From Saprospiraceae bacterium (GTDB lineage Bacteria; Bacteroidota; Bacteroidia; Chitinophagales; Saprospiraceae), in assembly GCA_958295895.1 (NCBI GenBank), contig CATQHI010000006.1:124001-188000 (forward strand): a stretch of 64,000 bases of DNA. Reading direction: 5' to 3'. Both the position numbers and the translations under genes were made by a program. This document shows positions 5,898-58,098 of this stretch, in pieces (the stretch's first letter is position 1; each line of letters begins with the position of its first letter). The notes below the pieces were generated by a model. That model worked only from the letters and a program-made list of their open reading frames with translations, had not been told where the DNA came from and did no database searches.

Positions 5898-6692
5898 CTA
5901 CCTACAGGATGTGTTGATGCCCAGCACGTAATTTTGCACCACCTGAATCTGGGGCGCGGCCTGTGCACCGTCAAAGCCGGAAATGGCATCATCCCGCAGC
6001 TCGGTGGCGGCGTAGTCCGTGAGTTGTTTGGCCAGGGGCACGTAGCTCCAGTGCCAGTGTTCCTCCTCGTAGCCGGTGGGGCGGGCGTCTCCCTTGGGGG
6101 TGTAGGGCTGACAGAAGCCGTAGTCGGCGGCGTGGGTGGTTAGCCAGTTGTAGATCTTCTTACCCTCGCCGGCCTCGAAGTAGTCATTGGTCAGCGCATT
6201 GAGGTCAATGTCGGTGCCCCAGTGGTGGCGGCTAGTACCGGGCATGGAGGAGTAGCGCAGGATGGCCCGGGCCCGGTCGGCGGGATCGGGGTACACCTCG
6301 TCGGCCTTTTCGGTGCCCTCCAGTAGCCGTTCACCGCGCCACTTGGCCTCCCATATCTGCTTCTGGCGGGCGAAGTTGCGGGTGGCAGACACGATCACAA
6401 GTTTCACCCCATCGGCATCGGCCGCCGCGTACATCCGCTCGAAGGCCGCGTAGGTATCGCGGTGCAGTAGGTAGGGGTCACCGTCGGTGTAGCGGTCGGC
6501 CACCGGCACAAAGTCGGGGTGCTCGGCGGGGTCGAATTTCCCGGTAATGTAGGCGTAGCTCGGAATAGCGGGGATGCTGTCAACACTGATGGGCGGGGCC
6601 GCAGGTGCAACGGAAGTGGCGGCGGGCGGAGCTGGCGGAACGGGAGCGCCACAGGCCAGTAGCAGCAGTAGGATAGTAGACAGGAAATTCAT
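5898..6692 (-). CDS. M15-family D-alanyl-D-alanine carboxypeptidase (VanY-like) lipoprotein
   Basis: A 264-residue lipoprotein (lipobox LLAC, Cys14) with a Pro/Ala-rich linker and a LAS-type peptidase domain. Zinc and catalytic motifs are SRHHWGTDID (residues 154-163; ligands His156 and Asp163) and EEEHWHW (about 209-215; catalytic Glu211, ligand His214). Family members cleave the terminal D-Ala of peptidoglycan stem peptides in the periplasm. The linker contains VAPAAPP, encoded by a copy of the dispersed 20-bp motif at 6591-6610; the same peptide occurs in the unrelated lipoprotein at 35073-35597. A -7-like box lies 6 bases before the ATG. Confidence 0.88.
   Translation of the reverse strand: MNFLSTILLLLLACGAPVPPAPPAATSVAPAAPPISVDSIPAIPSYAYITGKFDPAEHPDFVPVADRYTDGDPYLLHRDTYAAFERMYAAADADGVKLVIVSATRNFARQKQIWEAKWRGERLLEGTEKADEVYPDPADRARAILRYSSMPGTSRHHWGTDIDLNALTNDYFEAGEGKKIYNWLTTHAADYGFCQPYTPKGDARPTGYEEEHWHWSYVPLAKQLTDYAATELRDDAISGFDGAQAAPQIQVVQNYVLGINTSCR
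6591..6610 (+). repeat. Dispersed 20-bp motif, exact copy
   Basis: Exact match to GGGCGGGGCCGCAGGTGCAA, inside the VanY-like gene on the non-coding strand, where its complement encodes VAPAAPP. Confidence 0.8.
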
Positions 6693-6698
6693 AAGCCG

Positions 6699-6706
6699 CT
6701 AAGGTA
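6699..6706 (-). promoter_or_regulatory. -7-like box 6 bases before ATG (VanY-like gene)
   Basis: TACCTTAG on the minus strand, then six bases, then the ATG at 6692. The position implies a leaderless or near-leaderless mRNA. Confidence 0.45.
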
Positions 6707-6718
6707 GTTGCCGCACAC

Positions 6719-7105
6719 CTACTTCGCTACCACCGCCGAGAGCTTCATGAGAAAGTATACCTCGAAGCCCGTGTATACCAGGTAGAGCCAGAAGAAGGGC
6801 ACGATGAAGAGTTTATTGCCCGGTGCTCCCAGCAGCACGTAGCCCACCACCAGCATACCACACAGCAGCATCTTTACCATCGTCAGCCCCAGGAACACGT
6901 TGCTGAATAGCATCCGGTTCTCCGCACCTGCGCTCCGCCGCCCTAGAAAGAACAAGGCCACGCAGATGAACGCAAAGACCAGTCCCGTGGCGATCGTGAA
7001 GGGCACGGCGTAGTCGATCGCCAGCAGCCAGTGGCACAGGAACGCGCCCAGTGCTGCCAGTCCACTTACGGCCGCCAGTAGCCCGAAGAATCGCGAGGTG
7101 AGCAT
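6719..7105 (-). CDS. Four-helix integral membrane protein, unknown function
   Basis: A 128-residue protein with four hydrophobic helices (about 5-25, 32-53, 66-90 and 98-122) separated by short loops; one loop, GRRSAGAENRM, carries positive charge. The ATG at 7105 begins MLTSRFFGLLAA; the 15 codons upstream in frame are part of a palindromic repeat and are not expected to be translated. The size and topology recall AtpI-like or other small inner-membrane accessory proteins, but no motif fixes a family. Its -7 box TACTTTTG ends 4 bases before the ATG. Confidence 0.6.
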   Translation of the reverse strand: MLTSRFFGLLAAVSGLAALGAFLCHWLLAIDYAVPFTIATGLVFAFICVALFFLGRRSAGAENRMLFSNVFLGLTMVKMLLCGMLVVGYVLLGAPGNKLFIVPFFWLYLVYTGFEVYFLMKLSAVVAK

Positions 7106-7109
7106 TTCA

Positions 7110-7117
7110 CAAAAGTA
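7110..7117 (-). promoter_or_regulatory. -7 box TACTTTTG, 4 bases before ATG
   Basis: Exact TAnnTTTG match on the minus strand. The ATG at 7105 follows after 4 bases, implying a leaderless transcript. Confidence 0.5.
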
Positions 7118-7136
7118 CGATGCGGCTTGCAGCCGC
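7114..7136. repeat. Repeated palindrome (copy 1)
   Basis: GCGGCTTGCAGCCGC (7122-7136) with flank GTAC-GAT. The same palindrome with the same flanking ATCGTAC occurs at 29883-29904. Here it sits just upstream of a -7 box. Confidence 0.5.
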
Positions 7137-7168
7137 GCCGTGCCGCGCAACTTGCAGTTGCGACGGCT

Positions 7169-11594: not shown

Positions 11595-11690
11595 AGGTAG
11601 ATTCTCTAAGGGGGCGGGGTCGCCGGTGCGTTATACGTAGAACTAAGCGGGGGGCCGGTCGTTCACACCCTGAATCGCTGTTGTCCCACA

Positions 11691-12667: not shown

Positions 12668-14335
12668 TCACAACCCCTCCACCACATAGGGCCACCCCTC
12701 AAACTGCGCCGCTCTCGCCGCCGTCACATCCACCGTCCGCGGCCAGCACTCGAAGGTCACCGTACGCCCCACCGGGTCGAAGCGAATGAAGCCGAAACCC
12801 GCCCCGTGGTCCGGCTGATCGGGATTGGCGTAGGCCAGCATGGTGATAGGGTTATTGAAGCCGTCGCGGTACTCGCCTAGCCAGGGAAGGTCCACCCCCT
12901 CGCGCGCATTCGGCCCGGCCTGCTCGCTGGCCGGCCACCACCAGCGGCTGTAGTAGTTGTTGACGATGGCGGGCACCAAGAAGGCGTAGGGACCGTCGTT
13001 AAAGTCGTCGATACCGTGATGAATTATGGTTGCTAGGTGCTGATCGCCGCCAATGTGGACGGCATTCGCATTTTTGATGAGGCGTAAGGCCTCATTACGC
13101 CCCGTCTGCGGCCAGCCGTTGGAGTCCATATCGGCGTGCAGACGGTTGTCGAGCTGGCCGTGGATATGGGCCCCGTTAGCAAAGCCGGTTTGGGAAAGGA
13201 CTGCCTTCATGGGCTTCACCGCACCTGCGTCCCTGCCCCACTGCTCCAGAAAAGCGAGTTGCCGCTCGCCGAGTAGCTCCAGACCGGCCACGTCGACGCT
13301 CTTTGGGTCGTAATCTGGGTTACGGATGTGATCCGGTCGGGGACCCTGCTGCGGAATCTTGTCTTTAGGACCGGACTTGAACTTACGGTCCTCGATGATG
13401 GCAAAGTCCACCGAGCCCAGGGGGTAGTCCGTGTAGTACACGCCGATACCCTGCTCCACCGGGGTAGGATCGTAGGGGTCGGGGAGGTGGCTGGTCTGGG
13501 CGCGCTCGACCATCTTCACGTAGTCGGGGTCGTAGTAGTACCCACCGTCGTCGCCCTCTACGCGCTCGGCTTTCTTACCGCCCTCGCCCCAGAGGTTGCC
13601 CTGCCCGATGTCGTGGTCGTCGGGGATGCTGACCATGGGCCGGTGGCGAAACACCTCCCGAAACTGCTTACCGAACAGCAGCCAGGCTGCCGTATGCTCC
13701 TTGTGAAAGTACGACTGATCGCCGGCGAAGAATACCAGGTCCGGGTCCAGCGCATTAATGTTGCGCACGTACTCCTCGCGGCCACCGATGTCCTTACTGG
13801 AGTTGCAGCTTAGGGCGGCCATGGTGACCTCCTCGCCCATGGGCGGTACGTGACGGATGGTGCCCCCGAACGTAGCTCCGTTCTCGTGCCGCAGCCGGTA
13901 GGGGGTGTCCTCATTTTCCGGCCAGTCCTCCGCGCGGAACACGGCGTGCCAGCCGATCTCATTCACCTCCTGCTTACCGTATTCCTGCCACGCGCCGTCA
14001 CGCTCGAAGTCCAGGTACACCGTGCGGGACTCGGCGGGGTAGAGGGGGTAGAGCTGGGCGGAGAGCTTCAGTATGCCACCGGCCACGGTGTAAGCTCCGA
14101 AGGCTACGATAGAGTCGCGGCCAATTTTCAGGTTGGTGATGTGGCTGGCATCGCGGGTCCACCAATCGTTGGTGGCCAGTACGTCCAGGCTGTCAAAGGG
14201 GGCACGCTCGTAAATTGCGTCGGGTTGCACGTCGGTCACGTCGGCCTGGGGGGCGCGTGCGCAGGTGCAGAGGTTAAGGAGTAGGGGAATTAATGTGCAA
14301 AAGGATGAATGGGGCGTACGGAGGAGATAGCGCAT
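12668..14335 (-). CDS. PhoD-like alkaline phosphatase/metallophosphodiesterase
   Basis: A 555-residue exported protein (hydrophobic N-terminus with LNLCTC, possibly a lipobox). The metallophosphatase core shows ALSCNSSKDIGGREEYVRNI, PDLVFFAGDQSYFHKEHTA, VSIPDDHDIGQGN (metal-binding DDHD) and HIGGDQHLATIIHHG. This pattern matches the PhoD branch of calcineurin-like phosphoesterases, which release phosphate from phosphodiesters or monoesters in the periplasm. The sulfatase gene lies upstream on the same strand with a 43-bp gap, so the two may form an operon for scavenging from sulfated or phosphorylated substrates (inference). Confidence 0.8.
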   Translation of the reverse strand: MRYLLRTPHSSFCTLIPLLLNLCTCARAPQADVTDVQPDAIYERAPFDSLDVLATNDWWTRDASHITNLKIGRDSIVAFGAYTVAGGILKLSAQLYPLYPAESRTVYLDFERDGAWQEYGKQEVNEIGWHAVFRAEDWPENEDTPYRLRHENGATFGGTIRHVPPMGEEVTMAALSCNSSKDIGGREEYVRNINALDPDLVFFAGDQSYFHKEHTAAWLLFGKQFREVFRHRPMVSIPDDHDIGQGNLWGEGGKKAERVEGDDGGYYYDPDYVKMVERAQTSHLPDPYDPTPVEQGIGVYYTDYPLGSVDFAIIEDRKFKSGPKDKIPQQGPRPDHIRNPDYDPKSVDVAGLELLGERQLAFLEQWGRDAGAVKPMKAVLSQTGFANGAHIHGQLDNRLHADMDSNGWPQTGRNEALRLIKNANAVHIGGDQHLATIIHHGIDDFNDGPYAFLVPAIVNNYYSRWWWPASEQAGPNAREGVDLPWLGEYRDGFNNPITMLAYANPDQPDHGAGFGFIRFDPVGRTVTFECWPRTVDVTAARAAQFEGWPYVVEGL

Positions 14336-16026: not shown

Positions 16027-16046
16027 CGGCGGGGCCGCGGGTGCGG
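16027..16046 (+). repeat. Dispersed 20-bp motif, degenerate copy
   Basis: CGGCGGGGCCGCGGGTGCGG, 4 mismatches to the consensus; intergenic, between the sulfatase and rloA. Confidence 0.6.
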
Positions 16047-18202: not shown

Positions 18203-18222
18203 CCGCACCCGCGACCCCGCCC
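18203..18222 (-). repeat. Dispersed 20-bp motif, degenerate copy
   Basis: On the minus strand GGGCGGGGTCGCGGGTGCGG (4 mismatches). Intergenic, in the 149 bp between rloB and the next gene, where nothing else was recognised. Confidence 0.6.
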
Positions 18223-20398: not shown

Positions 20399-20418
20399 GG
20401 GCGTGGTCGCAGGTGCAA
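20399..20418 (+). repeat. Dispersed 20-bp motif
   Basis: GGGCGTGGTCGCAGGTGCAA, 2 mismatches; in the shared upstream region of icd and the AI-2E transporter gene. Confidence 0.7.
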
Positions 20419-21727: not shown

Positions 21728-24259
21728 TCAATCAAGCTCTTTCTGCAAAGCGATATCCGACAGCGCAGAGGACCGCATCCCACTCACCAGTCCCTTCCAG
21801 TACGCATTAAAGAAACTCCGCTCCCGGCTGTGCTCGTGGTACATCTTGCCCTGGCGGAAGTCCTCCCCCCGGTAGTTATCTTTTTTGAGCACAAAGCCCG
21901 AGACCAGCTTCTTGAACCAGCTGCCACCACCCACCAACGTCACGTCTAGATCGTGGTACAGCATAGTCAGTTCGCCGGTCAGCACTTCGTTCTCTAGCTG
22001 GCCCCGGTACTGCATGCCCTCGATGACGCCCGACTCGATGTAGGCGTTGGCCACTACCTCGAACAGCGGATTGATCCCACTCAGATCGTACTGCCCGAAC
22101 TCACCACGGATGCCGTAGTTGCGCCCGCTGCTATCCCGCGCCAGGGCAAACTCGGCGTGCAGCGGGGTAGCGCGCTCGAAGGTGGCATCGAAGGAAAGTT
22201 GGACACTATCCGTAGTACTGAGCTCGGTATCGAGGTTGTCCAGGCGGACCGTGCCGGCGGAGAAGTGGATGGTCTTGGCGTCCAGCACGGTATCGACGAC
22301 CCCGTAGGCGATGTCGGTAGACAGAAGGCGGGCCGCTCGCAACTGGATGCGGGGGCCGATCCGGCGCAGGGCTTCGATGGGCATAAGCTTTTGTTTTGGG
22401 GGGGGGTCCATGGCGATATCCTCGACCACCAGCACCCGAAAGTCGGCGGCGGTGAGGGAGTCCACCGCGACGGTCTCCCCCCGCAGCAGTGCGTCGTGGG
22501 CGATGCCACTGGCCCGCAGCCCGTCAAATTGGAAGTCGAGCCAGGACTTACTCACCTCGTCCCGGAAGGTCTCCGCGGCGGACAACCGATTGCGGCGCTG
22601 GAGGCTATCGAGGGTCAGCAGGCCCAGGCGGCTCGTGTAGGCAATGCGGTCGAAAACGTAGTCGATGGGCTCTTCCTCCCCCAGGATCGTCACCCGGTCG
22701 ACCCGCAGCTTACTTGGCCCCAGGCGGGTGGGTGCGAAGGGGGTGACGATGCCGTACTGGTCGAGGTACACGCCCCGGGCTACGATATTCTCTTTGCCCG
22801 TTTGGCCGCGGCGGCGCAGGGTCCCGTTGGCAAGTTGGGCACGGTTGATCTGCAGTCCCTCAGCGGTGGTTATTTCGCTCAGGGTCAGGGAGGGGGCGGT
22901 GATGGCGTAGCTGCCGCCGTCGCGGTTGTGCACGGTGAGGTCGGCCGTACGGACCTTGGCCGAGCCGGCGCGTACGGGCTCGCCCGCGAGTAGCGCCGAG
23001 CGGTCGATGTCCGACACGTTGAGGCTGGCTACGGTGCCGGTGATCCGATCGCCGGAGATCCGCAGGTCGCTGCCCCCCAGGGTGCGCTCCGCACTGTTGT
23101 AGTCCAACCCGGCCGCGGTGATCGTCTCTGTGCCCGTTTCGACGGTGAGCTCCGGTACCGTGAGGCGGGTAGGTCCTACCGTAGCGGGCTGCAACGGCAC
23201 GGTGAGCTGGCCCTGCTCCAGTACCGCTTGGCTAGCCGCTATGGTCAGGTTTTTTTGGTTGTCAAAGGATAGCCGCTTCCCGTCTAGTTTCAGGCTTTCT
23301 AGTTGTAGACTGTCCCGGTAAGACAGACCAGTCACGACCAGTGCTCCGTCAAGTGCGGCGGTGCCGAAGGGGCCACGGAGGGCCAGATCGACGTCCGGTA
23401 GGGAGAGGGTTCCCAGCTGTAGGGCAGGGGGCGGGGGGGAGGAGGCTTGGGCGGGCTTGTCCCGCTGCGATAGACTTTGCACCCGCGCGCCGCCGCCCAG
23501 CTGTGCGACGGAGATGGAATCCAGGAGGATGACCTCCTGCCGGAGCTGCGCCTCGGTGATACCCACAAGGCGTAGGTCGCGGGCCCATAGGTCGGTCTGT
23601 TGGCCCTGCCGGAAGGACACGTCACCCACCTGGACGGCAGCATACTCCGTGGCGTAGAAAATAGTAGTCGCGGTGAGCTGGGTACTGTCCTGCGGGGCGA
23701 GGTAGGCCACCGTGTCGGCATTCACCCGGAGGCGCTCAATGGCGGCGGACTGTAGGGGGAGCGTGAGGGGTTCCAGGGTGCCGCTGAGGTGGCGGACGTT
23801 GAGTTGTCTGTCCGTCGGTACATCGGTGAGGTCGAGAAAGATGCTATCCAGGTACAGGGCCGAGACGTCCAGGGCAAACTCGGAACTATCCGCCGCGGTC
23901 GCGGGTGCAGCCTGACGGGTAAGGGCAGCTTCTAACCCCCGCAGCCGGACCTCCCGTACGGTGATGGGCTTACCCGTGAGGAGGCTTAGTAGATTGACCC
24001 CGCGGACAGACACGCTGGATAGGGAGCCACGGGCAGCGATAGTATTACGGTCCTGATCGAAGCGAATGCCGGTAGCGGTGAGGCCGATGGGGAAGAAGCC
24101 GTAGCGGTAGTCGCGAATGAATAGGCTGTTGTCGCCCGCATTAGCCCGCGCAATGGCCCCCTCGATGCGCTGACCTACGTACCAGTCTGCCGCAAAATAC
24201 AACAGCAGGGGAAGGAGCAGCAGCAGGTACCACCAGCGAAAACGAAACGTACCGGTCAT
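21728..24259 (-). CDS. AsmA/YhdP-like membrane-anchored protein
   Basis: An 843-residue protein with one N-terminal membrane helix (WWYLLLLLPLLLYFAADWYV) followed by a very long periplasmic repeat-rich beta region with recurring 'domain/function' strands (LSSVSVRGVNLLSLL, VREVRLRGLEAAL, LGTLSLPDVDLALRG, LTVPELTVETGTETITAAGL). It ends with segments typical of AsmA/TamB-like lipid-transfer beta-taco proteins (GQYDLSGINPLFEVVANAYIESGVIEGMQYRGQLENEVLTG). This suggests a role in moving phospholipid between membranes or in envelope assembly. The assignment rests on architecture; no single signature is decisive. Confidence 0.6.
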   Translation of the reverse strand: MTGTFRFRWWYLLLLLPLLLYFAADWYVGQRIEGAIARANAGDNSLFIRDYRYGFFPIGLTATGIRFDQDRNTIAARGSLSSVSVRGVNLLSLLTGKPITVREVRLRGLEAALTRQAAPATAADSSEFALDVSALYLDSIFLDLTDVPTDRQLNVRHLSGTLEPLTLPLQSAAIERLRVNADTVAYLAPQDSTQLTATTIFYATEYAAVQVGDVSFRQGQQTDLWARDLRLVGITEAQLRQEVILLDSISVAQLGGGARVQSLSQRDKPAQASSPPPPALQLGTLSLPDVDLALRGPFGTAALDGALVVTGLSYRDSLQLESLKLDGKRLSFDNQKNLTIAASQAVLEQGQLTVPLQPATVGPTRLTVPELTVETGTETITAAGLDYNSAERTLGGSDLRISGDRITGTVASLNVSDIDRSALLAGEPVRAGSAKVRTADLTVHNRDGGSYAITAPSLTLSEITTAEGLQINRAQLANGTLRRRGQTGKENIVARGVYLDQYGIVTPFAPTRLGPSKLRVDRVTILGEEEPIDYVFDRIAYTSRLGLLTLDSLQRRNRLSAAETFRDEVSKSWLDFQFDGLRASGIAHDALLRGETVAVDSLTAADFRVLVVEDIAMDPPPKQKLMPIEALRRIGPRIQLRAARLLSTDIAYGVVDTVLDAKTIHFSAGTVRLDNLDTELSTTDSVQLSFDATFERATPLHAEFALARDSSGRNYGIRGEFGQYDLSGINPLFEVVANAYIESGVIEGMQYRGQLENEVLTGELTMLYHDLDVTLVGGGSWFKKLVSGFVLKKDNYRGEDFRQGKMYHEHSRERSFFNAYWKGLVSGMRSSALSDIALQKELD

Positions 24260-28859: not shown

Positions 28860-29879
28860 ATGAGCACCGACGCCGCCGCCCCCCCCGCCCGCGCCACCAT
28901 CCTCTCCGGCATTCAGCCCACCGGCAAGCTGCACTTCGGCCGCTACTTCGGCGCCGTCGAAAACTGGAAGCGGCTGCAAGAAGATTACGACTGCCTCTAC
29001 ATGGTGGCCAATTACCACGCCATGTCGATGCCCTTTCAGGCCAAAAAACTGGCGGAAAACAGCTGGGAAATCTGTTTTCATCTCCTGGCCTGTGGCATTA
29101 AGGCCGAAAACCTGTTTATCCAGAGCCTCATCCCCGAGCACACCGAGCTGGCCTGGATTCTCAACTGCTTCACTAGCTACGGCCAGCTCGGCCGCATGAC
29201 CCAGTTCAAGGACAAGAGCGCCCAGAGCGAGGAGTTCATCTCCGCCGGGCTGTTCACCTATCCCGCCCTCCAGGCCGCCGACATCCTCATCTACAAGGCC
29301 GGTGTCGTGCCCGTAGGTAAGGACCAGGAGCAGCACCTGGAGCTCACCCGCGACATCGCCCAGCGCTTCAACAACTTCGCCGGCCAGGACTTTTTCCCCA
29401 TCCCCGAAGCCCTCTATACTGCCGTTCCCAAAGTGATGAGCACCGCCGACCCCAGCCGCAAGATGAGCGCCAGCCAGGGTGATAAGCACAACATCGACGT
29501 CTTTGCCGACGAGGCCCGCATCCGCAAGCAGGTCCGCTCCGCTGTCACCGATACGGGAGCCACCGACGCAGCCGGGGCCGCAGGTGCCATGTCGGATGGC
29601 GTGGCCAACCTATTCAGCCTCCTGAGCGCCGCCGGCCAGGTCGGGGCCTATGCCTCCCTGATGCAAGACTACGAATCCGGCACGCTCCGCTACGCCGACC
29701 TCAAGGACGCCGTCGCCGACGGACTCGTCAGTATCTCCACCGAGCTACGGGCCCGCTACCAGGAGCTGAAGAAAGACCGCAGGGCGGTCAAGAACCAGAT
29801 CAAGGAGAGTAGCTTCGAGATTCGGAAGCGGGCGCAGACTACGGTGCGGGAGGTGAAGCAGATTTGCGGCCTGGCGTAA
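28860..29879 (+). CDS. trpS: Tryptophanyl-tRNA synthetase
   Basis: A 339-residue class I synthetase that charges tRNA-Trp. The HIGH-equivalent is GIQPTGKLHFGRYFGA (near 18-33), the KMSKS-equivalent KMSASQGDK (near 201-209), and other marks are DYDCLYMVANYHAM, MTQFKDKS, YPALQAADILIYKA and VPVGKDQEQHLELTRDIA. A Gly/Ala-rich stretch TGATDAAGAAGAMSDG just after the KMSAS region is encoded partly by a copy of the dispersed 20-bp motif (29570-29589); this loop normally varies, so activity should be intact. A palindrome follows the stop codon. Confidence 0.95.
   Translation: MSTDAAAPPARATILSGIQPTGKLHFGRYFGAVENWKRLQEDYDCLYMVANYHAMSMPFQAKKLAENSWEICFHLLACGIKAENLFIQSLIPEHTELAWILNCFTSYGQLGRMTQFKDKSAQSEEFISAGLFTYPALQAADILIYKAGVVPVGKDQEQHLELTRDIAQRFNNFAGQDFFPIPEALYTAVPKVMSTADPSRKMSASQGDKHNIDVFADEARIRKQVRSAVTDTGATDAAGAAGAMSDGVANLFSLLSAAGQVGAYASLMQDYESGTLRYADLKDAVADGLVSISTELRARYQELKKDRRAVKNQIKESSFEIRKRAQTTVREVKQICGLA
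29570..29589 (+). repeat. Dispersed 20-bp motif inside trpS
   Basis: AGCCGGGGCCGCAGGTGCCA, with core GGGGCCGCAGGTGC intact. In frame it encodes part of AGAAGAM. Confidence 0.65.
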
Positions 29880-31500: not shown

Positions 31501-33555
31501 TTAGTTAGTAAAAAGACCCAGCAGCACCAGACTGGCACCGCGGGCACGTTCTACTTCCAAGCGCAGCCGGTAGGGGCCAGGTTCGGTCACTTCGTAGTCT
31601 AACATGGGGTACGCGTCCCCCTCGCGGTCGACGCGTAGTATTTCGGGCGAGTCACCGGCCAGGTATAGGTCGATGTCCTGCACGGATTCCGGACCGGTGG
31701 CGGCGAAGAAATAGCGCCCCGTCCCGAGCCGGAGGTTTTCTACGGTGGCCCCCTCTCCCTCCTCGAGGAGGTAACCGAAGACACACCAGCTGTCCGGCCC
31801 GCCACGGAAGGTCCTGGCACCGCCCGCCGCCCGCACTGCACCCGCGGCCGCGCCAAATTGCTGGCTGACCTCGCGAAAGGCCGCATCGGGTAGCGATACG
31901 CCGAACGAGCGCAGCATACCCAGTGCCACCAGTGCCGTCGCGGAGTCACCACTCACGTAGTGGAGTTGGATGGTAAAGGTGGCCGCCGTGTCGACGGTGA
32001 GCTCCACGATGGGCGTCTGGTCGGACTCGGTATCCGCGCCCACGATCGCGCCGCTCGCGTCACGTACCAGGAGGTCAAGATCGGTGGTGCCGGGCGCGGC
32101 GGAGGCAATAAAGATGTACTTGCGGGCCACCCGGAGCTGTACCTCCAGGCTCACGGTCTTGCTACGCTCCAGCTGCGTGGCGGCCAGACACAGCCCCGGT
32201 CGCCAGTCGGTACCCGAAACGGCGACCATGAGGTTACACTTGGCGTAGAGGCCGTCGAGGGTCTCGTTGAGGCGATCGGCACTGGACCAGGACTGGGCCG
32301 ACACCGGTAGAGCAAAGAGCAGAAATAAGAGTAAGCGCAGAAGGAGGTCGGTGGTGCGGCGGGCGGCTCCGGCATTGGCGGTCAGGTAATCATGCTGGGC
32401 CTGCTGCGCCGCGGCGTAGGCAGCCGGGTCACGGAGCTCCTGCAGCCGCTCGCTTAGCTCCCCAGCACTCCCGACCGAGAAGGCCCCGCCCCGCGCCACA
32501 GCCGCCCGCGCTTCGGGAAACTTCGCGTAGCGCGGGCCGAACAGCCCCGGCAGGCCGTAGCTCATCGGCTCCAGGGTATTGTGCAGGCCGGAGCCGTACC
32601 CGCCGCCGATGAAGGCCACCGTACCGTAGCGGTAGGCCCGGCTGAGGATGCCGATGGTGTCGAGCAGCATGACACGTTTGCCCCGCGGCGTACCTGTATA
32701 CCGCTCGGCGTCAAACTGCTGCTGCCAGGCAATGAGTTGCTGCTCGTCGAGCTGGTGGGGGGCCAGAACCAGTCGCCACTCCGCCGGTTGGGCCGACCAG
32801 GCTCCGGTGATGACCTCCACGTCCTGCGGCCAGACGGAGCCGGCCAGCAGGGTAGGGTGGCCGGCGGTGAAGTCGGCGAGGCGCTGATCGGCGAAGGGCT
32901 GCGCGGCGAGGGCGCGGGTGCGGTCGATGCGAGGATCACCGGTCACCGTCACCCGGTCGATGCCGATGCCTGCCAGCAACTTGCGGTCTTCCTCGGTTTG
33001 TACCAGCAGATGGTCGAAGACGTGTAGCATCCGTCGGTAGAAGCCGCCGTAGGGCCGAAAGAATAATTGCCCGGGGCGGAAGCTGCCGGCAATGAGGAAG
33101 GTGGGCACCCCGGCAGCCCGCAGGCTGTGAAGGTGATAGTACCAGAACTCGTACTTGACGAATACCGCCAGGCGGGGGCGGAGTAGCTCGATCCAGGCAG
33201 CTGCTCTACGGGGCGTATCGGTAGGCAGGTAAGTGACCACCTCCGCCAGTTCCGTACCCCGGCACCGCTCGTAGCCGCTGGGGCTAAAGAAGGTAAGCAC
33301 CACCGCCCAGCCGGGCCGGGCGATGCGCAGCGCTTCGAGTACCGGGCGGCCCTGCTCGAACTCCCCCAGGCTGGCGGCGTGCAGCCACAGGATGGGCCGC
33401 CCAGCAGCATGAAGGGCCTCGATACGGTCGCTTACGTCCTGCTCCCGGCCGGTAACCCACCTAGCGGCTTGCACACTACCCAGTCGGGCGGCGGCGGCGA
33501 TGCCCAGGTGGTAGGCGCCCGTGCCGACGCGGTAGACCAGCTCCGCCGCACTCAA
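31501..33555 (-). CDS. waaA: Kdo transferase (WaaA) fused to a secreted-type domain
   Basis: A 684-residue protein. Residues 1 to about 400 are a full WaaA/KdtA: LWLHAASLGEFEQGRPVLEAL, VKYEFWYYHLHSLRAAGVPTFLI, VTGDPRIDR, VLAPHQLDE and FIGGGYGSGLHNTLEPMSYGLPGLFGPRY. It adds Kdo from CMP-Kdo to lipid A precursor at the inner membrane. At about 403-423 a typical signal peptide appears inside the protein (LLLRLLLFLLFALPVSAQ), followed by 260 residues of beta-sandwich, PPC-like repeats (LDLLVRDASG, YFFAATGPESVQDIDLYLAG). No in-frame ATG lies at the junction, so this is either a true fusion or two genes joined by a lost stop. The start is TTG, overlapping the upstream TGA as TTGA. Confidence 0.8.
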   Translation of the reverse strand: MSAAELVYRVGTGAYHLGIAAAARLGSVQAARWVTGREQDVSDRIEALHAAGRPILWLHAASLGEFEQGRPVLEALRIARPGWAVVLTFFSPSGYERCRGTELAEVVTYLPTDTPRRAAAWIELLRPRLAVFVKYEFWYYHLHSLRAAGVPTFLIAGSFRPGQLFFRPYGGFYRRMLHVFDHLLVQTEEDRKLLAGIGIDRVTVTGDPRIDRTRALAAQPFADQRLADFTAGHPTLLAGSVWPQDVEVITGAWSAQPAEWRLVLAPHQLDEQQLIAWQQQFDAERYTGTPRGKRVMLLDTIGILSRAYRYGTVAFIGGGYGSGLHNTLEPMSYGLPGLFGPRYAKFPEARAAVARGGAFSVGSAGELSERLQELRDPAAYAAAQQAQHDYLTANAGAARRTTDLLLRLLLFLLFALPVSAQSWSSADRLNETLDGLYAKCNLMVAVSGTDWRPGLCLAATQLERSKTVSLEVQLRVARKYIFIASAAPGTTDLDLLVRDASGAIVGADTESDQTPIVELTVDTAATFTIQLHYVSGDSATALVALGMLRSFGVSLPDAAFREVSQQFGAAAGAVRAAGGARTFRGGPDSWCVFGYLLEEGEGATVENLRLGTGRYFFAATGPESVQDIDLYLAGDSPEILRVDREGDAYPMLDYEVTEPGPYRLRLEVERARGASLVLLGLFTN

Positions 33556-35072: not shown

Positions 35073-35597
35073 CTATCCGCCAAGGAGCGGCCGCACCGCC
35101 TCGCGTACATCCGGCAGCGTACGGAAATTGCGCCGGTACACGTACCGCAGCGCGTTGCGGTAGATAAAGGTGGTAGGCAGAGTGCCATCCCAGTGCTCAT
35201 CCAGCGCAGTTTTCCACTCCTGCCGCTCGTCGGTCAGCACCGCGTTAGGCAGCCCCACCTGCTGCCGGACCAGGTAGTCCGGAATGCGCGCGATGGCCGC
35301 CGTATCCGTGTCCAGGCTCACTAAGATTACCCGCAGGGGGGCGTCACGCTCTTCCTCTGCCAGCTCCTGCAACAGCGGCAGTTCCTCCAGACAGGGCTTA
35401 CACCAGGTGGCCCAGAAGTTGATCAGGTAGGTGGTGTCGTTATGTTGGCGGAAGAGGTCGGCCAGCTCGTTGTAATCAGTGTACACTCTGGGCGGGGCCG
35501 CGGGTGCAACGAGGGTGGAAACGGGGGCGGCGGGCGGGGTGGGGGTGTCGCAGCCTGCTAGTGCTAGTAAAGCGAATAGTGCTCCAATGGTACGCAT
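35073..35597 (-). CDS. TlpA/ResA-like thioredoxin-fold lipoprotein
   Basis: A 174-residue lipoprotein (lipobox LAGC, Cys16) with a Pro-rich linker and a thioredoxin fold. The active site is WATWCKPCLEE (redox WCKPC), with the cis-Pro region at GTLPTTFIYR. It would reduce or exchange disulfides in periplasmic proteins, for example during cytochrome maturation or envelope protein folding. The linker VAPAAPP is encoded by a copy of the dispersed 20-bp motif (35490-35509), as in the VanY-like lipoprotein. Confidence 0.9.
   Translation of the reverse strand: MRTIGALFALLALAGCDTPTPPAAPVSTLVAPAAPPRVYTDYNELADLFRQHNDTTYLINFWATWCKPCLEELPLLQELAEEERDAPLRVILVSLDTDTAAIARIPDYLVRQQVGLPNAVLTDERQEWKTALDEHWDGTLPTTFIYRNALRYVYRRNFRTLPDVREAVRPLLGG
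35490..35509 (+). repeat. Dispersed 20-bp motif
   Basis: GGGCGGGGCCGCGGGTGCAA, 1 mismatch; inside the TlpA-like gene on its non-coding strand. Confidence 0.75.
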
Positions 35598-36994: not shown

Positions 36995-38974
36995 TAGATC
37001 CAGGGGGGCGGAATAGGCCAGGTACATCATCTCCCAGCTGGGGTCGAACTTTTCCTTGAAGTGGCGTAGGCTCCGGTAGTGCGCAAAACCGCGCATGCGC
37101 TCGTAGGCTAGCTTTACGGCCCGCTCCTGGGCAGTGCGCGGTTCCTCGATGCCGGACAGGGGCACCATGCCTAGGTTGCAACGCGTCATGCCCACCTCCC
37201 GAAAGTGGTCGAAAACCTGGCAGAAGAGAAAGTCCATAGTGCCGTTGGGCGCGTCCGGCAACTTGCGCATCAGCTCAAAGGCGCCCTCGCCATCCACGCC
37301 GGAGGGGATGACGTTGAGGAAGGCCACCACCTTACCCTCGGCACTTTCCACACGGAGGATCGTCTGCTCCGCCAGCTCCCTCTCGTCGAATACGCCCTGG
37401 GAAAAGATGAGCTCCCGCCCGCCGCCTATATCGCCTAGCCACGCGTCACTCACCGCCCGCAGCTGCTGCAGAAAGGACGGCCGCTGTGGCGGGGTAGTGG
37501 TCCGTAGCACGTAACCCTGTTTGGTCAGTTTGTTGATGGAGTTGCGCAGTTCCTTGCGGGCCGCCCCCTGTAGCGACCAGTGCGTCAGGTCCACGGTGGC
37601 CTCCTCCCCGATGGGGAAGAGCAGTTTGCCCAGGGAGGTGTACACCAGTTGCTGCGAGGCCGCCAGCCGGTAGTAGCCGGTGCGCAGGTTGTGCCCCCGG
37701 GCGAAGTCGTCGAAGGCCCGGATGAGATCGTTACGGTCCTCCGCCGCGCACACCGGCCCCTCAATGGCCACTGCGTAACCCAGCGCGACCCGGTAGGCCA
37801 CAAAGCCCCGGTCGTCGGGGGCAAACCAGAGCAGCTTGTCGCGGTAGGTTTTGAAGTAGTCCAGGCTGCTGCTGCCGTGGGCCTGCACCAGACTACGGAC
37901 TTCGCTCAGTCCATCAGCCGAGGTGGGGGGCGCGTACGCAGCTGCACCGCTCCGGAGGAAGTAGTCGCCGCGGGTGAGCACCAGGCTCAGCATCGTCAGC
38001 CCGGCCAGACTCGCCTCTTCCCAGTCGATCCCCTTGGTCAGGTAGCCGAGTAGGGGAACGCCGCTCAGCAGCAGGGTCGCCCACCACGCCCGCCGGTACC
38101 CCCGCAGCAGGTAGTACGACAGCAGTAACATGGCGGTGCCCGCCGCCAGTACCAGCCAGGTGGAGGTGGCGATGGCTGCGACGGGCAGTAGCTCCCGTAG
38201 TAGGAGCAACCGCCGGGGCAGTGCCGGGGTGAGAGCCGACCAGATACTTACCGCCCCCAGGATCAACAGCAACACCGTAGGCCACACCCGCCACAGCAGC
38301 AGGTCGCGCCGCGCTACCAGGGCCAGCAGTCCCAGTAGCAGCACCGACCAGAATTCGAAGAAGCGGAACAGTAGCGCAATGCTCAGCCCCAGCACCGCCC
38401 CGAAACCAAACTGGCTCAGGGCGAACACCAGCGCTACCTCGATCGCCCCGATACCCCGGAGGAAGGGGGAACTCATGAGTAGCAGCAAGACAATGCCGTA
38501 GCCCACCACCGCTAGCTCCACACTCGGGGAGCTCCCCAGGGCCGCGGTGGCGATGTAGAGGTGAGCAATGCCGATGAGCACGGTCGTCACGCCGATGCCC
38601 ACCACGTACACGGCCGAGAGCCCCTGCCGCAGAAAAATTCAGCTACCCGCCGGCAGGCCCACCAGTACCGCCGTCAGGATGGAGCAAAAGGAAAATAGCG
38701 CGGAGGCGAGGTATATCTGCTCCCGGGCCACCCCGTCGCGGCGCTGCACCTCCTGATTGAAGAACGCCAGGTTGGTCAGGGGGCCCGCCGGCAGGAACAC
38801 ACTGATGAGGTTGCGCTTCAGGAAGAGTAGGGTACAGGTACTGAGACGTACCTCCCGGCCCACGGCGCGAAAACTGATGCGGTACATGTACCCCTGCACT
38901 ACCACAAAAGCCAGCACCAGCGCGCCGCCGCCCGCTATCCAGACCGGATCGGCCGCCGCCAGGGCTTCGCTCAC
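36953..38974 (-). pseudogene. mprF: MprF-like lysyl-phosphatidylglycerol synthase/flippase, in-frame stop
   Basis: Residues 1-111 (from a GTG at 38974) read as the membrane flippase part (GYMYRISFRAVG, FLPAGPLTNLAFFNQEVQRRDG). A TGA at 38639-38641 interrupts it, after which the same frame continues with LRQGLSAVYVVGIGVTTVLI and more membrane helices, then a full DUF2156 synthase domain (FVAYRVALGYAVAIEGPVCA, NSINKLTKQGYVL, MDFLFCQVFDHFREVGMTRCNLGM). The N-terminus also lacks the first helices expected of MprF. It would add Lys or another amino acid to phosphatidylglycerol to resist cationic peptides. It is a nonsense mutant, a readthrough gene or a sequence error; translation could restart at a GTG near 38611. 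Confidence 0.75.
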
Positions 38975-43293: not shown

Positions 43294-44607
43294 TCAACTT
43301 TGGAGATTTCCTGGATTCAGCCACCGCGTAGCAAGGGCGTCATTTCTGACATCAAAGGAAAGCGTGACCTCATGCCACTGCCCCCGGTTTTCGTAAGCGA
43401 TGTCGTAACCGTACCGCTTACAGATCTCCCCGACGATCGACAGCCCCAGACCCAGCGACTGGTTATCCGCGTCCCCCTTGCCAAATCGTTCGAAGAGCCG
43501 TTCCGTACCATTTTCTGCCAGAGGCAACCCGGTGTTACCCACGGTCAGTGTGCGATTTTGCAACGTGAGGCTCACCCGCCCGCCGGCCACGTTATGCTTG
43601 ATCGCGTTGCTCAGCAGGTTATTGAGCAGCACGTCCAGCAGTACGGGGTGGGCGCGGACGCAGGTGCCGCGCAAATCGGATTCGAGCAGCAGCCCTTTTT
43701 GCTCCAGCATCACTTCGAGTTGCCCGAGTTTGTCCCGCAGCAGGGGGCCCAGCTCAATGTCCGCAAGCTGCTCGTACTGATCGTTGTCGATGCGGGTGAG
43801 CAGCAGCAGGGCCTGGTTCAGCTTTTTGAGTCGGTCGAGGGCCTCGCTGAGGTGTTGGAGATGGGCGAAGTCAGTCTCACTGCGGTCGGCCGATTGCAGC
43901 ATCAGATCGACCTGGTTGCGCATGATGGCCAGCGGCGTTTGCAGCTCGTGGCTGGCGTTGTCGGTAAACTGGCGCAGGGAGTGGTAGTCGCGGCGGAGCT
44001 TCTCGGTCATGCTCCGTAGGGCGGTGTTCAGCCGCTCGAATTCCTCGATATCGCTGGGGGGGAATACCGGCACCGTCTTGCGCTTCACGTCAAAACGTTG
44101 CACCTGCGTCAGCGCCCCAAAGAAGGGTTGCCAGAGCCGCAGGGAGAGGTAGCGGTTGAGCACGTAGATACCGAGCAGGAAAAGACCGAAGAAGGCCATA
44201 CTTACCCCGAATAGGACGACGATGAGGTCCTCGCTTTCCACCTTGAGCCGGGAGACGGTGATGCGGTAGGGCTGGCCGTTGATCTCCCGGTCGTAGACCA
44301 CTCTGCGGTAGGGCTCCATCTCCCCCTCGATGGGCTCGAAGAAGACCGTATCGGAAAAGGTGAAGGAGCCGGTGACCCGCTCGATCGGTGCGGTCGTGAT
44401 GACGGCGTCAAGTTGGTAAAAGGTGTCGGGCACCGCCGGAAGCTGGGCCAGGTAAGCATCGAGCCGCACGCTGGCGTCGGCGACCTGGTCGTCCAGCTCC
44501 TCATCGATGATGTAGCGCAGCCCGGTGAAGAGCAGCAGGCCGGTAAGCAGAAAGGCGACCGCCGAAAAGGCGAGGTAGTAGCGGGAGGTGCGCTGGAGTA
44601 GCTTCAT
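43294..44607 (-). CDS. Sensor histidine kinase
   Basis: A 437-residue two-helix membrane kinase. Helix 1 is at about 12-33, a periplasmic sensor domain of about 110 residues follows, and helix 2 is at about 150-172. Then come a HAMP-like linker, the H-box NASHELQTPLAIMRNQVDL (phospho-acceptor His near 218), the N-box LLNNLLSNAIKHN, and the G-box region ERFGKGDADNQSLGLGLSIVGEIC. It phosphorylates the response regulator encoded immediately upstream (ATGA overlap; start ATG 44607). Two copies of the dispersed motif fall inside the gene (43650-43669 and 44098-44118). Confidence 0.92.
   Translation of the reverse strand: MKLLQRTSRYYLAFSAVAFLLTGLLLFTGLRYIIDEELDDQVADASVRLDAYLAQLPAVPDTFYQLDAVITTAPIERVTGSFTFSDTVFFEPIEGEMEPYRRVVYDREINGQPYRITVSRLKVESEDLIVVLFGVSMAFFGLFLLGIYVLNRYLSLRLWQPFFGALTQVQRFDVKRKTVPVFPPSDIEEFERLNTALRSMTEKLRRDYHSLRQFTDNASHELQTPLAIMRNQVDLMLQSADRSETDFAHLQHLSEALDRLKKLNQALLLLTRIDNDQYEQLADIELGPLLRDKLGQLEVMLEQKGLLLESDLRGTCVRAHPVLLDVLLNNLLSNAIKHNVAGGRVSLTLQNRTLTVGNTGLPLAENGTERLFERFGKGDADNQSLGLGLSIVGEICKRYGYDIAYENRGQWHEVTLSFDVRNDALATRWLNPGNLQS
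43650..43669 (+). repeat. Dispersed 20-bp motif in the kinase gene
   Basis: GGGCGCGGACGCAGGTGCCG (4 mismatches) on the non-coding strand. A second, weaker copy lies at 44098-44118. Confidence 0.5.
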
Positions 44608-49060: not shown

Positions 49061-49542
49061 TGATTCGCTTTGAGCCGATAAGTTAAATTACAACAGGTTT
49101 CGAGCGGACCGCCGGAATTCGTTCACCCCACATTCTCCGCCCTTCACCACAAAGCTTTGCACCGGCGTACCCGCCCGCTGTGGTACCTACGAGCGGCGGT
49201 TTCTGGAGCGGTTCGTGGGCTAGTAACTTCAGTTCACCACTATAAACCGCCCGTTCACCACAAGCCGGGCCCCCGCGCCCGAGCTTGCTTTCCTTTTGAT
49301 CGGTCATTCCAGTCGCCGAGCTTCACTTGGCCGGGGAGGTAGTTAGTACAGTCTGCCCTGAACAACGGAGTCTGGTCACTAGCAGGTTTGACGGCACCTA
49401 GGCTAGGCAGTCTGCTGAGTAGGCGTTACAGCGCGGTACGCTAGTTCGGGGCGGGGCCGCAGGTGCAATGTAGATGGAGAAAGGTGACGAACAATGTGAT
49501 TGAATTTCCCATTATTCAGAAAATTTCCTAATTCTCTACCCC
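49061..49542. other. Intergenic region, 480 bp, no gene recognised
   Basis: No conserved reading frame was recognised on either strand. It contains an exact copy of the dispersed 20-bp motif (49449-49468) and two imperfect repeats of CCGCCC-GTTCACCAC-type sequence (49130-49160 and 49230-49262). TAATTCTC lies just before the ADH gene. Confidence 0.4.
49449..49468 (+). repeat. Dispersed 20-bp motif, exact copy
   Basis: Exact GGGCGGGGCCGCAGGTGCAA in intergenic DNA; identical to 6591-6610. Confidence 0.8.
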
Positions 49543-52584: not shown

Positions 52585-52604
52585 TTGCACCTGCGACCCC
52601 GCCC
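52585..52604 (-). repeat. Dispersed 20-bp motif in the GH78 gene
   Basis: GGGCGGGGTCGCAGGTGCAA on the minus (coding) strand, 1 mismatch. Confidence 0.75.
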
Positions 52605-53135: not shown

Positions 53136-53155
53136 GGGCGGGGACGCGGGTGCGG
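53136..53155 (+). repeat. Dispersed 20-bp motif in the GH78 gene (second copy)
   Basis: GGGCGGGGACGCGGGTGCGG, 4 mismatches, on the non-coding strand. Confidence 0.6.
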
Positions 53156-56155: not shown

Positions 56156-56163
56156 TATCTTGC
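56156..56163 (+). promoter_or_regulatory. -7-like box 4 bases before ATG (AAA/nuclease gene)
   Basis: TATCTTGC, then ACCC, then the ATG at 56168. Confidence 0.4.
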
Positions 56164-56167
56164 ACCC

Positions 56168-57699
56168 ATGCTCAAGTACCCCATCGGCATTCAGGACTTC
56201 CGTACCCTCCGCGAGGGGGGCTACGCCTACGTGGATAAGACGGAGCACATCCACCGGCTGCTGACCACGGGTAAATACTACTTCTTCAGTCGGCCGCGCC
56301 GCTTCGGCAAATCGCTGACGGTGGCCACCATGAACGAGCTGTACAGTGGCAGCCGCGAGCTCTTCGACGGGCTATGGGTGCAGGACCACTGGGATTTTGA
56401 GGCGATGCGGCGACCGGTACTGTGGCTTAAACTGGCGCGCCTCGATTATCGTGAAAAGGGGCTTTCTAAAGCGCTACTCGACGAGTTGCATCGTATAGCT
56501 CGAACTTACGATCTCACGCTTACGGAGGGCACGTTAAAGGAAACTTTTGACGGGATGCTACGCCGCCTTGCCAATCAGCACGGACGGGTAGTGCTGCTGG
56601 TCGACGAGTACGATAGCCCATCATCGACTACCTCGATGACCTGCCGCAGGCGGAGGCCAACCGCGAAGTGCTGAAGAACTTCTATTCCGTAATCAAAGAT
56701 AGCGATCCCTTTCTAGAATTGGTATTCATCACCGGAGTGAGCGCCTTCAGCAAGGTCAGCATCTTTTCCGACCTCAACCATTTAAACAACATTTCGCTAT
56801 CGCCGCTAACCAACACACTGGTTGGAATCACCGAGGCGGAGCTAGAAACATACTTTGAGCCCGCGCTAGCGTCGGTCAACCGGACGCAAATGCGGCGCTG
56901 GTATAATGGCTACTCCTGGACGGGGGAGCAAACGGTATACAACCCCTTCTCTCTACTCTGTTTTCTGTCCGATGGGCAGTACCGCAACTACTGGTTCGAG
57001 ACCGGCACCCCCACCTTTTTGGTCAAAGCGCTGCGTGACCGGCAACTTTACCCCCCTGCACGATATCGAGCTCACGCAGCAGGATCTGACGTCGTTCGAG
57101 TTGGGTCAGTTACCGGCCCTACTCCCTGCTGTTCCAGACGGGCTATTTGACCATCACCGAGTCCGAGCCGGCTATCAGCTACTATAAACTCGATTTTCCC
57201 AACCTGGAGGTCAAACAATCGCTGGAAGAGATGTTCGCTGGGTGCCTACGCCAGTGAGGAGGCGGGCAATCCCCGTAGCCGCGTCCTGGCGATTTACCGA
57301 GCGCTCCAACGCAAGGAGATTGACAAGGTCGTCGAGGCCATTAACGCCGTATTGAGCGGCGTCCCGTATGATCTCTGGCAACGCGGTGACGAGCGTACCT
57401 TCCATACCCTGGTGCATTTGCTCTTCAGTTTACTGGTGCATTTGCTCTTCAGTTTACTGGGGGTCATCGTTCAGTCCGAAGTCCACACCGCCCGCGGCCG
57501 CTGCGATGCCCTGGTGCTCGTCGATGACTACGTCTACGCCTTTGAGTTCAAGATAAATGCTACCGCTCAGGCTGCCCTGGACCAGATCGCGGCCCGTGGC
57601 TACCTGGCTCCCTACGCCGATGACCCGCGGGAAAAGGTGGCGGTGGGGATCAGTTTTGACAGCGAGAGTAGACAGATCGGAGCCTGGGCTGAGGTGTGA
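56168..57699 (+). pseudogene. AAA-ATPase-like / PD-(D/E)XK nuclease protein, several frameshifts
   Basis: The 5' part reads YPIGIQDFRTLREGGYAYVDKTEHI and FFSRPRRFGKSLTVATMNEL (Walker A-like, PF09820), with VVLLVDEYDSP (Walker B). At about 56620 the frame shifts to IIDYLDDLPQAEANREVLKNFYSVIKDSD. Further shifts fall near 57050 (a run of six C), 57120 and 57235, and the last frame gives the PD-(D/E)XK tail: ARGRCDALVLVDDYVYAFEFKI. A 24-bp tandem duplication (about 57409-57456) repeats LVHLLFSL. These proteins are widespread, recombinogenic and of unknown function in Bacteroidota. At least four lesions make it a true pseudogene. Confidence 0.8.
57409..57456 (+). repeat. 24-bp tandem duplication
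   Basis: Two adjacent copies of a 24-mer (core CATTTGCTCTTCAGTTTACT), giving LVHLLFSL twice in the decayed nuclease gene. Confidence 0.7.
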
Positions 57700-58098
57700 G
57701 GAAGTCTTGCGCCTCTGATAGTTCCGATAGCTATCGGGGGGGGCGCCATGCGATGAGATGGGCGGGGACGCAGGTGCGAAGAGGGCTAATTTTGCCGTGC
57801 AGGTAAAATACGCTTGCTGGATTGCGATAAGTAACTGTAGCGCAGGGAACTATTACCTGGGCATGAAACGGCCGGATGTCGTTTTGCTTAATTGGTTGGA
57901 TTACAGGGAAATAGGCGATTTTGGCAGGTTGTACTTTTGCAGGAAGTAGAACCTAGTAACGTGGGCAGGTGCGCAGGCCGCCTTCCCGCAAACAATGATA
58001 CGAAGAAGTCAACTATTAATAACCTGTAAATGCTCAGCTAGCTATAAAAACATGGCCGGGCGGCTTGTCGAACCTGCGGTGTTCTGCGCTTTCTTTTC
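57700..58098. other. Intergenic region before IS66, no gene recognised
   Basis: It holds a perfect palindrome CCGATAGCTATCGG (57724-57737) followed by a G run, a dispersed-motif copy (57760-57779) and two orphan -7 boxes, TAATTTTG (57787-57794) and TACTTTTG (57932-57939), with no recognisable gene after them. A 63-codon open frame (57758-57949) has no homology signal and overlaps the motif copy. Confidence 0.4.
57760..57779 (+). repeat. Dispersed 20-bp motif
   Basis: GGGCGGGGACGCAGGTGCGA, 2 mismatches; intergenic. Confidence 0.7.

What the first reader, a model, noticed from the sequence alone, without database searches (positions are those of the whole stretch)
6591..57779. A dispersed 20-bp GC-rich motif, about 19 copies in 64 kb
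GGGCGGGGCCGCAGGTGCAA occurs exactly at 6591 and 49449, with one mismatch at 35490 and 52585(-), and with 2-4 mismatches at 16027, 18203(-), 20399, 29570, 43650, 53136 and 57760. More degenerate relatives keep the CGC(A/G)GGTGC core: 393(-), 6922(-), 13219(-), 14251, 23891, 31836(-), 44098(-), 47999, 63440(-). Two exact 20-mers alone are not expected by chance in 64 kb. Copies lie in unrelated genes, in several reading frames and both orientations, and between genes, so the signal acts at DNA level. It could be an uptake sequence, a recombination or segregation signal, a methylase or nucleoid-protein site, or a tiny mobile repeat.
Basis: seen in the sequence. Interest (0 to 1): 0.82.

Follow-up and report, generated by a model that had tools for sequence, protein, structure and literature searches.

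The report
Genus-wide strand-spaced DNA signal in Neolewinella
Marine Neolewinella bacteria and some phages carry many copies of a 20-letter DNA signal whose copies on the same strand keep kilobases apart, a pattern absent from the two known signals we tested, which suggests an unknown system that reads DNA one strand at a time.

Summary
The motif is real. The window has 10 copies at up to 3 mismatches (0.01 expected); the genome has 792 against 4 for the reversed pattern. The genome belongs to Neolewinella. Of 21 genus genomes, 20 carry form A, form B or both; the other (G011) carries an unrelated motif, C. In 117 sampled genomes of other genera of the family it has 0-3 matches. G001 and G007 carry B almost only, at a few sites where relatives carry A. 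Fixed positions diverge 5-11%, flanks 21-24%. Copies arise mostly by substitution. New is strand-specific exclusion: same-orientation pairs within 2 kb number 31 against 109 expected, opposite ones 137; orientation alternates in 297 of 407 steps, permuted 205 +- 10. A genome with true DUS does not show this beyond 300 bp, and E. coli Chi clusters instead. PilT-type pilus ATPases were not found. Phage contigs carry the motif at host density. Best reading: a strand-polar self-DNA signal read by a moving DNA-processing machine (Chi-like in action). Main rival: a strand-read uptake sequence. The reader protein is unknown.

The parts
6591..6610 (+). form A copy, exact
   Evidence: in the 5' part of a VanY-type carboxypeptidase gene, antisense to it
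49449..49468 (+). form A copy, exact, between divergent genes
35490..35509 (+). form A copy, 1 mismatch, at the 5' end of an AhpC/TSA-type gene
52585..52604 (-). form A copy, 1 mismatch, in an alpha-L-rhamnosidase gene
20399..20418 (+). form A copy, 2 mismatches, at the start of an Iso_dh open frame
   Evidence: my gene caller puts it just upstream
57760..57779 (+). form A copy, 2 mismatches, intergenic
29570..29589 (+). form A copy, 3 mismatches, in a class I (Trp/Tyr) tRNA synthetase gene
44098..44117 (-). form A copy, 3 mismatches, in a histidine kinase gene
11612..11631 (+). weak form A copy, 4 mismatches
13219..13238 (-). weak form A copy, 4 mismatches
14251..14270 (+). weak form A copy, 4 mismatches
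16027..16046 (+). weak form A copy, 4 mismatches
18203..18222 (-). weak form A copy, 4 mismatches
23891..23910 (+). weak form A copy by weight matrix only
31836..31855 (-). weak form A copy, 4 mismatches
43650..43669 (+). weak form A copy, 4 mismatches
53136..53155 (+). weak form A copy, 4 mismatches
6924..6943 (-). form B copy (GGGCGGCGGAGCGCAGGTGC on the minus strand)
   Evidence: repeat family D3; B dialect defined
23479..23498 (-). form B copy
   Evidence: repeat family D3
38914..38933 (-). form B copy
   Evidence: repeat family D3
63442..63461 (-). form B copy inside the low-GC end of the window
   Evidence: repeat family D3

Best explanation
The motif is a cis-acting self-DNA signal read in one orientation by a machine that moves along or processes DNA strand by strand, much as Chi is read by a helicase-nuclease. 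One copy per strand every few kb is enough. A second copy on the same strand within about 2-3 kb is redundant and decays, while copies on the other strand serve traffic in the other direction and are independent. Host and phage DNA that carry the signal are treated as self (spared or recombined); newly arrived DNA that lacks it is not. Shown here: abundance, genus restriction, dialects, retention at orthologous sites, same-strand exclusion, and presence in phages.
For: Same-strand exclusion: within 1, 2 and 3 kb, 10, 31 and 62 same-orientation pairs against 55, 109 and 163 expected, versus 76, 137 and 183 opposite pairs. It is seen in each of four genomes (G000 14 versus 59.5 within 2 kb, G009 11 versus 30.7, G007 6 versus 14.1, G001 0 versus 4.9), again with A in G013 and with the unrelated motif C in G011. 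On contig C1 of G000, not used for the model, 24 of 32 steps alternate (capped listing, counted). Gene orientation does not explain it (155 of 213 alternations, 106 +- 7 expected from gene strands). DUS and E. coli Chi controls lack it. Phage record G441 carries 8 copies in 38.7 kb; it encodes a tape measure protein, a relative encodes terminase, head maturation protease, endolysin and tail fibre, and related contigs repeat the same sites. PilT-family ATPases give no match in 21 of 21 Neolewinella, so pilus-based uptake is unlikely. Fixed positions are conserved about two- to fourfold over flanks.
Against: No reader is identified. Known Chi sites are 5-8 bp (recalled), whereas here about 26-29 bits are conserved against about 13.6 needed to find the sites. 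E. coli Chi itself clusters on one strand instead of repelling, and Chi is usually strand-biased along the replichore (recalled), which this is not in the stretches read. Fast dialect turnover and restriction to one genus are more typical of uptake sequences. In G013 the depletion ends at 2 kb (10 versus 9.9 at 2-3 kb). In G000 convergent pairs exceed divergent ones within 1 kb (27 versus 17; 18 versus 3 with the A core alone), which the simple model does not predict.
Confidence: 0.42

Rival explanations
1. It is an uptake sequence in the sense of DUS/USS, but read on the single strand that enters the cell: DNA carrying it is preferentially taken up and recombined, so it spreads by molecular drive. 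Top- and bottom-strand entry are independent, so only same-strand copies on one fragment are redundant.
For: Dialects and in-place turnover. Intergenic enrichment: 61 of 132 copies between genes although genes cover 83-88% of the sequence. Near-equal orientation use. Conserved information twice what is needed. DprA in 20 of 21 genus genomes, the miss being a 55%-complete one, and ComEC in G000. One accessory block at C3:230-302 kb without copies.
Against: No PilT-family ATPase found in any of 21 genomes. A genome with true DUS shows no same-strand exclusion beyond 300 bp. A phage carries it at host density.
Confidence: 0.29
2. The motif is a break, nick or recombination hot spot. Close direct repeats delete the DNA between them and are purged, while inverted pairs are tolerated, which gives the same spacing rule as a side effect.
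For: Depletion is limited to direct orientation and falls off with distance. GCG...CGC inverted arms followed by GG occur in both forms (read by eye).
Against: Repeats of about 20 imperfect bases recombine rarely over 1-3 kb (recalled), and the deletions would usually remove needed genes. It does not explain the regular tiling of each strand (CV 0.40-0.63 in G009, G007 and G001).
Confidence: 0.1
3. A tiny mobile repeat of REP type moved by a Y1 transposase.
For: Y1 transposase genes occur in 20 of 21 genus genomes. One G009 copy sits in a clear insertion relative to G000, and 10 of 27 G000 copies align with gaps in the 20-mer.
Against: G018 has no Y1 match but 737 A copies. Aligned copies are mostly ungapped: 17 of 27 and 16 of 19, and with the core 36 of 39 and 34 of 38. 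A is replaced by B at some orthologous positions. Half the copies lie inside genes. No hairpin-centred palindrome.
Confidence: 0.06
4. Binding site of a nucleoid or loop-forming protein that is orientation-sensitive, or of a DNA modification enzyme.
For: Strand-specific spacing would suit an oriented barrier. Methylation was not testable here.
Against: I know of no bacterial protein with such sites (recalled). The information content far exceeds need. It does not obviously explain presence in a phage.
Confidence: 0.09

Closest known systems
DNA uptake sequences (DUS) of Neisseriaceae and uptake signal sequences (USS) of Pasteurellaceae
   Same: Many copies, both orientations, in and between genes, species dialects, weak flanking positions, retention at orthologous sites, one accessory block without copies.
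   Different: No PilT-family ATPase found. 18-20 bp core. Lower density (about 1 per 3.5-5.5 kb in sampled stretches). Same-strand exclusion, absent beyond 300 bp from a real DUS genome and not mentioned in the literature passages I saw (PMC1939737). Present in a phage.
Chi sites of RecBCD/AddAB
   Same: Oriented, dispersed, G-rich signal at a similar density. Form A contains GCNGGTG, close to E. coli Chi GCTGGTGG (Chi sequence recalled).
   Different: Far longer, genus-restricted, with regular spacing on each strand; E. coli Chi clusters on one strand. Reader unknown.
REP/RAYT repeats
   Same: Short dispersed repeats with lineage-specific versions.
   Different: Not palindromic, half inside genes, mostly no insertions, not tied to a Y1 transposase.
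KOPS / architecture-imparting sequences
   Same: Oriented short motifs along the chromosome.
   Different: No strand bias along the sampled stretches, and much longer.

Membership tests
DUS/USS uptake sequence | strong over-representation in own genome and close relatives | tested here: met
DUS/USS uptake sequence | lineage dialects | tested here: met
DUS/USS uptake sequence | type IV pilus machinery with a pilin receptor | tested here: not met
   TIGR01420 (PilT family) gives no match at E<=0.001 in 21 of 21 Neolewinella, while 13 of 14 control genomes ring; pilins and secretins were not searched
DUS/USS uptake sequence | competence genes dprA and comEC | tested here: met
   dprA in 20 of 21 Neolewinella; comEC checked in G000 only
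DUS/USS uptake sequence | motif raises DNA uptake | not testable with these tools
   needs cells
Chi site | orientation-dependent action | tested here: inconclusive
   same-strand exclusion implies orientation matters; action not measured
Chi site | short (5-8 bp) and recognised by RecBCD/AddAB | tested here: not met
   length: 14 fixed positions over 18 bp plus flanks; recognition not testable, and RecBCD/AddAB genes were not searched
Chi site | strand bias along replichores | tested here: not met
   near-equal orientation in two 400-kb stretches: 58/47 and 28/28
REP element | palindromic hairpin, mostly intergenic, RAYT partner | tested here: not met
   66 of 132 copies in genes; G018 lacks a Y1 transposase match
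KOPS-like segregation signal | skewed orientation toward dif | tested here: not met
   (sampled contigs only)
DNA methylation site | modified base at the motif | not testable with these tools
   no kinetics data

The most novel reading that the evidence does not exclude
Neolewinella has a previously undescribed self-DNA licensing system in which each DNA strand must carry its own oriented 18-20 bp signal every few kb. The signal changes dialect between species in place together with an unknown reader, and phages of these bacteria adopt it, perhaps with the same spacing rule.
Probability: 0.45. Interest if true: 0.93.

Novelty: new variant of a known kind. Interest (0 to 1): 0.85.

Why it matters
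The dispersed self-DNA signals I know of are DUS/USS in two proteobacterial families, and Chi. Another one, in Bacteroidota without detected type IV pilus motors, with dialects, a strand-specific spacing rule and use by phages, would point to an unknown reader and open the question of how cells count signals per strand. It makes a concrete search possible: find the protein whose variation tracks dialects A, B and C, and test whether phages use the signal to pass as self.

Tried and rejected
Larger mobile element: flanks beyond about 35 bp carry almost no information, so the unit is the motif itself. tRNA genes or Rfam RNAs: none in the window. Gene-orientation artefact for the alternation: rejected. 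Coding for a peptide: copies lie in all six frame/strand combinations. Motif-poor genus members: G001 and G007 turned out to carry form B, and G011 carries C. G021, another genus, shows only local palindromic arrays and no dispersed motif in 240 kb. A first tree was built from wrongly oriented loci and was replaced. That A and B exclude each other on the same strand is only suggestive: within 3 kb 11 same versus 21 opposite A-B pairs in G000 and G009, and B alone in G000 does not alternate. At 1 mismatch the B pattern is not specific in G000 and G009 (17 versus 13 and 18 versus 10 in controls), so only B sites of G007 and G001 (64 versus 4, 30 versus 4) carry weight in the lift-over. Motif C alternates in 22 of 32 steps (p 0.05), 16 of 26 or 16 of 23 by other patterns (p 0.33, 0.09). 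G442 and G448 may include host sequence; eight of the nine viral pairs within 3 kb lie in G442, G448 or G446, whose phage nature I did not establish. The conserved-site test used core matches lying wholly inside blastn alignments of at least 150 bp; other copies were dropped. Literature: full-text searches showed me no description of such a motif in Lewinella/Neolewinella or Bacteroidota in the held library; the three papers that hold the word Neolewinella were not opened. Of papers I saw search listings, and passages of PMC1939737, PMC12616744 and PMC5217627, nothing more.
Full report
Observation. At up to 3 mismatches the window has 10 copies against 0.01 expected. The whole genome (G000, 4.77 Mb, 35 contigs; the window is contig C6:124001-188000) has 422 forward and 370 reverse copies, against 4 for the reversed pattern; the capped listing is filled by about a hundred exact copies. 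In 864 kb of this genome (and the window) the consensus is GGGCGGGGnCGCaGGTGCaa, with positions 9 and 13 least fixed, and weaker flanks: A at -7, -6, -3, -2, G at +22, T at +27, G at +29, purines to about +35. Conserved information is 26 bits in the core and 29 bits with flanks, where about 13.6 bits would suffice to single out the sites.

Organism and range. Relatives found by a protein are named Neolewinella and Lewinella; contig lengths tie G009 to N. maritima, G007 to N. xylanilytica and G001 to Lewinella sp. IMCC34191, all listed as the same genus as G000. With the core pattern GGGCGNNGNCGCNGGTGC (form A), the 21 genus genomes hold from 2 to 1019 exact matches, reversed control 0-14. Of 120 genomes drawn from the family, G000 included, only the three Neolewinella (G000, G017, G002) have more than 3 matches; the other 117 have 0-3.

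Dialects. G001, G007 and G011 looked motif-poor. A search for over-represented words showed another form, B, in G001 and G007, about GGGCGsCGGaGCGCaGGwaaaa with T-rich flank. Genome counts A/B: G000 637/90, G009 392/58, G006 1019/44, G013 729/4, G012 209/256, G004 90/174, G007 18/764, G001 2/713, G011 2/1. Thus 20 of 21 carry A, B or both. G013 has its own A dialect, GGGCGCTGCCGCAGGTGC. G011 has an unrelated motif, C, about CRYTGCTACTTTGNWAGYCA: 24 exact cores in 120 kb against 1 in the control. A single-protein tree puts G001 and G007 together inside a clade of mixed A/B species, with G011 on a long branch.

Substitution in place, mostly not insertion. In blastn alignments of G000 and G009 (80% identity), 17 of 27 G000 copies and 16 of 19 G009 copies have no gap in the 20-mer (random windows: 8% gapped; several gapped cases are poorly aligned linkers, and one G009 copy is a clear insertion). 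Using the core, 36 of 39 and 34 of 38 are ungapped. Of 40 G000 A sites that lift to G009, 26 carry A at the same place (random 0.0003); of 27 G007 B sites that lift to G001, 20 carry B. Of 11 G000 A sites that lift to G007, 3 carry B there, and of 10 that lift to G001, 2 do (random 0.0007-0.0017); these cross-dialect counts are small. Fixed positions diverge 5-11% against 21-24% in flanks and 32-52% at free positions; between dialects (G000 to G007 or G001) fixed positions are not conserved, 32-33% against 28-29% in flanks. In a UvrD/PD-(D/E)XK helicase-nuclease the motif sits in a variable linker, and several relatives carry it in their own version, some with two inverted copies; others lack it.

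Gene context. By my own simple gene caller, genes cover 83-88% of the sequence, but of 132 copies 66 lie in genes, 61 between genes and 5 across gene edges. Several exact copies lie in what read by eye as signal-peptide starts. A 72-kb accessory block (C3:230-302 kb, with a type I restriction gene judged by eye, not searched) has no copy at up to 3 mismatches. Other accessory regions were not tested.

Strand rule. Successive copies alternate in orientation: G000 155 of 213 steps, G009 74 of 110, G007 45 of 57 (A and B together), G001 23 of 27; in all 297 of 407, permuted mean 205, sd 9.9, largest of 5000 permutations 242. On contig C1 of G000, not used to build the model, 24 of 32 steps alternate (capped listing). 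Gene strands predict 106 +- 7 for G000, not 155. Cause: same-orientation pairs are missing at short range (0-1 kb 10 versus 54.7 expected, 0-2 kb 31 versus 109, 0-3 kb 62 versus 163), while opposite pairs are not (76, 137, 183). Each of the four genomes shows it. Convergent and divergent pairs are alike beyond 1 kb; within 1 kb G000 has more convergent ones (27 versus 17; 18 versus 3 with the A core alone). G013 repeats the rule within 2 kb (2 versus 19.9), but not at 2-3 kb (10 versus 9.9); motif C in G011 repeats it at 100-3000 bp (2 versus 13.1), though 2 same-strand pairs lie under 100 bp. Each strand is tiled evenly in G009, G007 and G001 (CV 0.40-0.63), less so in G000 (0.96-1.19).

Controls. 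A genome with true DUS was found by pattern among 398 genomes of another phylum (G149, 848+836 copies). In 100 kb of it same-strand pairs are close to expectation beyond 300 bp and depleted below; its successive copies also alternate (67 of 109 exact 10-mers; 93 of 129 with one mismatch in the 12-mer), but tight inverted pairs under 100 bp (24 and 38) supply much of that. E. coli Chi in 350 kb clusters on the same strand (up to 3.9-fold) and alternates in 23 of 79 steps. So the rule is not a general property of DUS or Chi, as far as one genome each can show.

Machinery. No PilT-family ATPase match in 21 of 21 Neolewinella (13 of 14 control genomes ring). DprA in 20 of 21, the miss being a 55%-complete genome. 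ComEC is present in G000 and itself carries an exact copy. Y1 transposases occur in 20 of 21 but not in G018, which has 737 A copies.

Phages. Many are single hits. Eight records were searched whole: G441 (38.7 kb) has 8 copies, G442 (44.6 kb) 9, G448 (30.9 kb) 7, the other five 2-3 each; reversed controls 0, 3 and 1 for the first three, 0 for the rest. L276, part of G441, encodes a tape measure protein; L241, 94% identical to another part of G441 (L285), encodes terminase large subunit, head maturation protease, endolysin and tail fibre. Related contigs, about 90-100% identical, carry the motif at the same sites. Within 3 kb the eight records have 1 same-strand and 8 opposite pairs (p 0.04), but only one of these pairs is in G441. 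These records were chosen because they carry the motif, and their host is inferred from the motif.

Mechanism. An orientation-blind uptake signal should space all copies alike. A signal that initiates packaging or transfer to one side should treat convergent and divergent pairs differently over its whole range. Neither is seen. Independent tiling of each strand fits a signal recognised in one orientation by a processive machine, or on single strands. Because a phage carries it at host density and pilus motors were not found, I favour an intracellular, Chi-like self signal (0.42) over a strand-read uptake sequence (0.29).

Novelty. Full-text searches showed no report of it in the held library. 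DUS and USS are described for Neisseriaceae and Pasteurellaceae (PMC12616744, passages), with no orientation bias and orientation-independent uptake (PMC1939737, passages). I class this as a new variant of dispersed genome signals; the strand rule may prove a new kind.

Noticed in passing
window 46146-47530: Insertion-sequence-like element: 30-bp inverted ends (90%) around a 443-aa DDE_Tnp_1 transposase.
   Followed up: partly
window 58099-60513: IS66-type element whose transposase matches are spread over two overlapping open frames, with 46-bp imperfect inverted ends; described only.
   Followed up: partly
window 60001-64000: Low-GC (43%) end with an Mrr_cat restriction endonuclease (60521-61627), no form A copy and one form B copy: probably a recent arrival.
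   Followed up: partly
window 57409-57456 and 1198-1261: Exact 24-bp tandem duplication, and an 18-bp tandem repeat.
   Followed up: no
L127-L146 (G009), L147-L158 (G007), L188-L207 (G013): Other over-represented dispersed words: TAATCCGTGTTTA in G009, TAGTCTTTTAGGG in G007, GACTACAGACT and TTAGATTTTAG in G013; nature unknown.
   Followed up: no
L176-L187 (G021): Local arrays of a palindrome CCCACGACT..AGTCGTGGG in a related genus.
   Followed up: no
L085 and L091-L093, linker of the UvrD/PD-(D/E)XK gene: The linker is greatly lengthened in some species and in some carries two inverted motif copies, as if the motif collects in a tolerant protein segment.
   Followed up: partly
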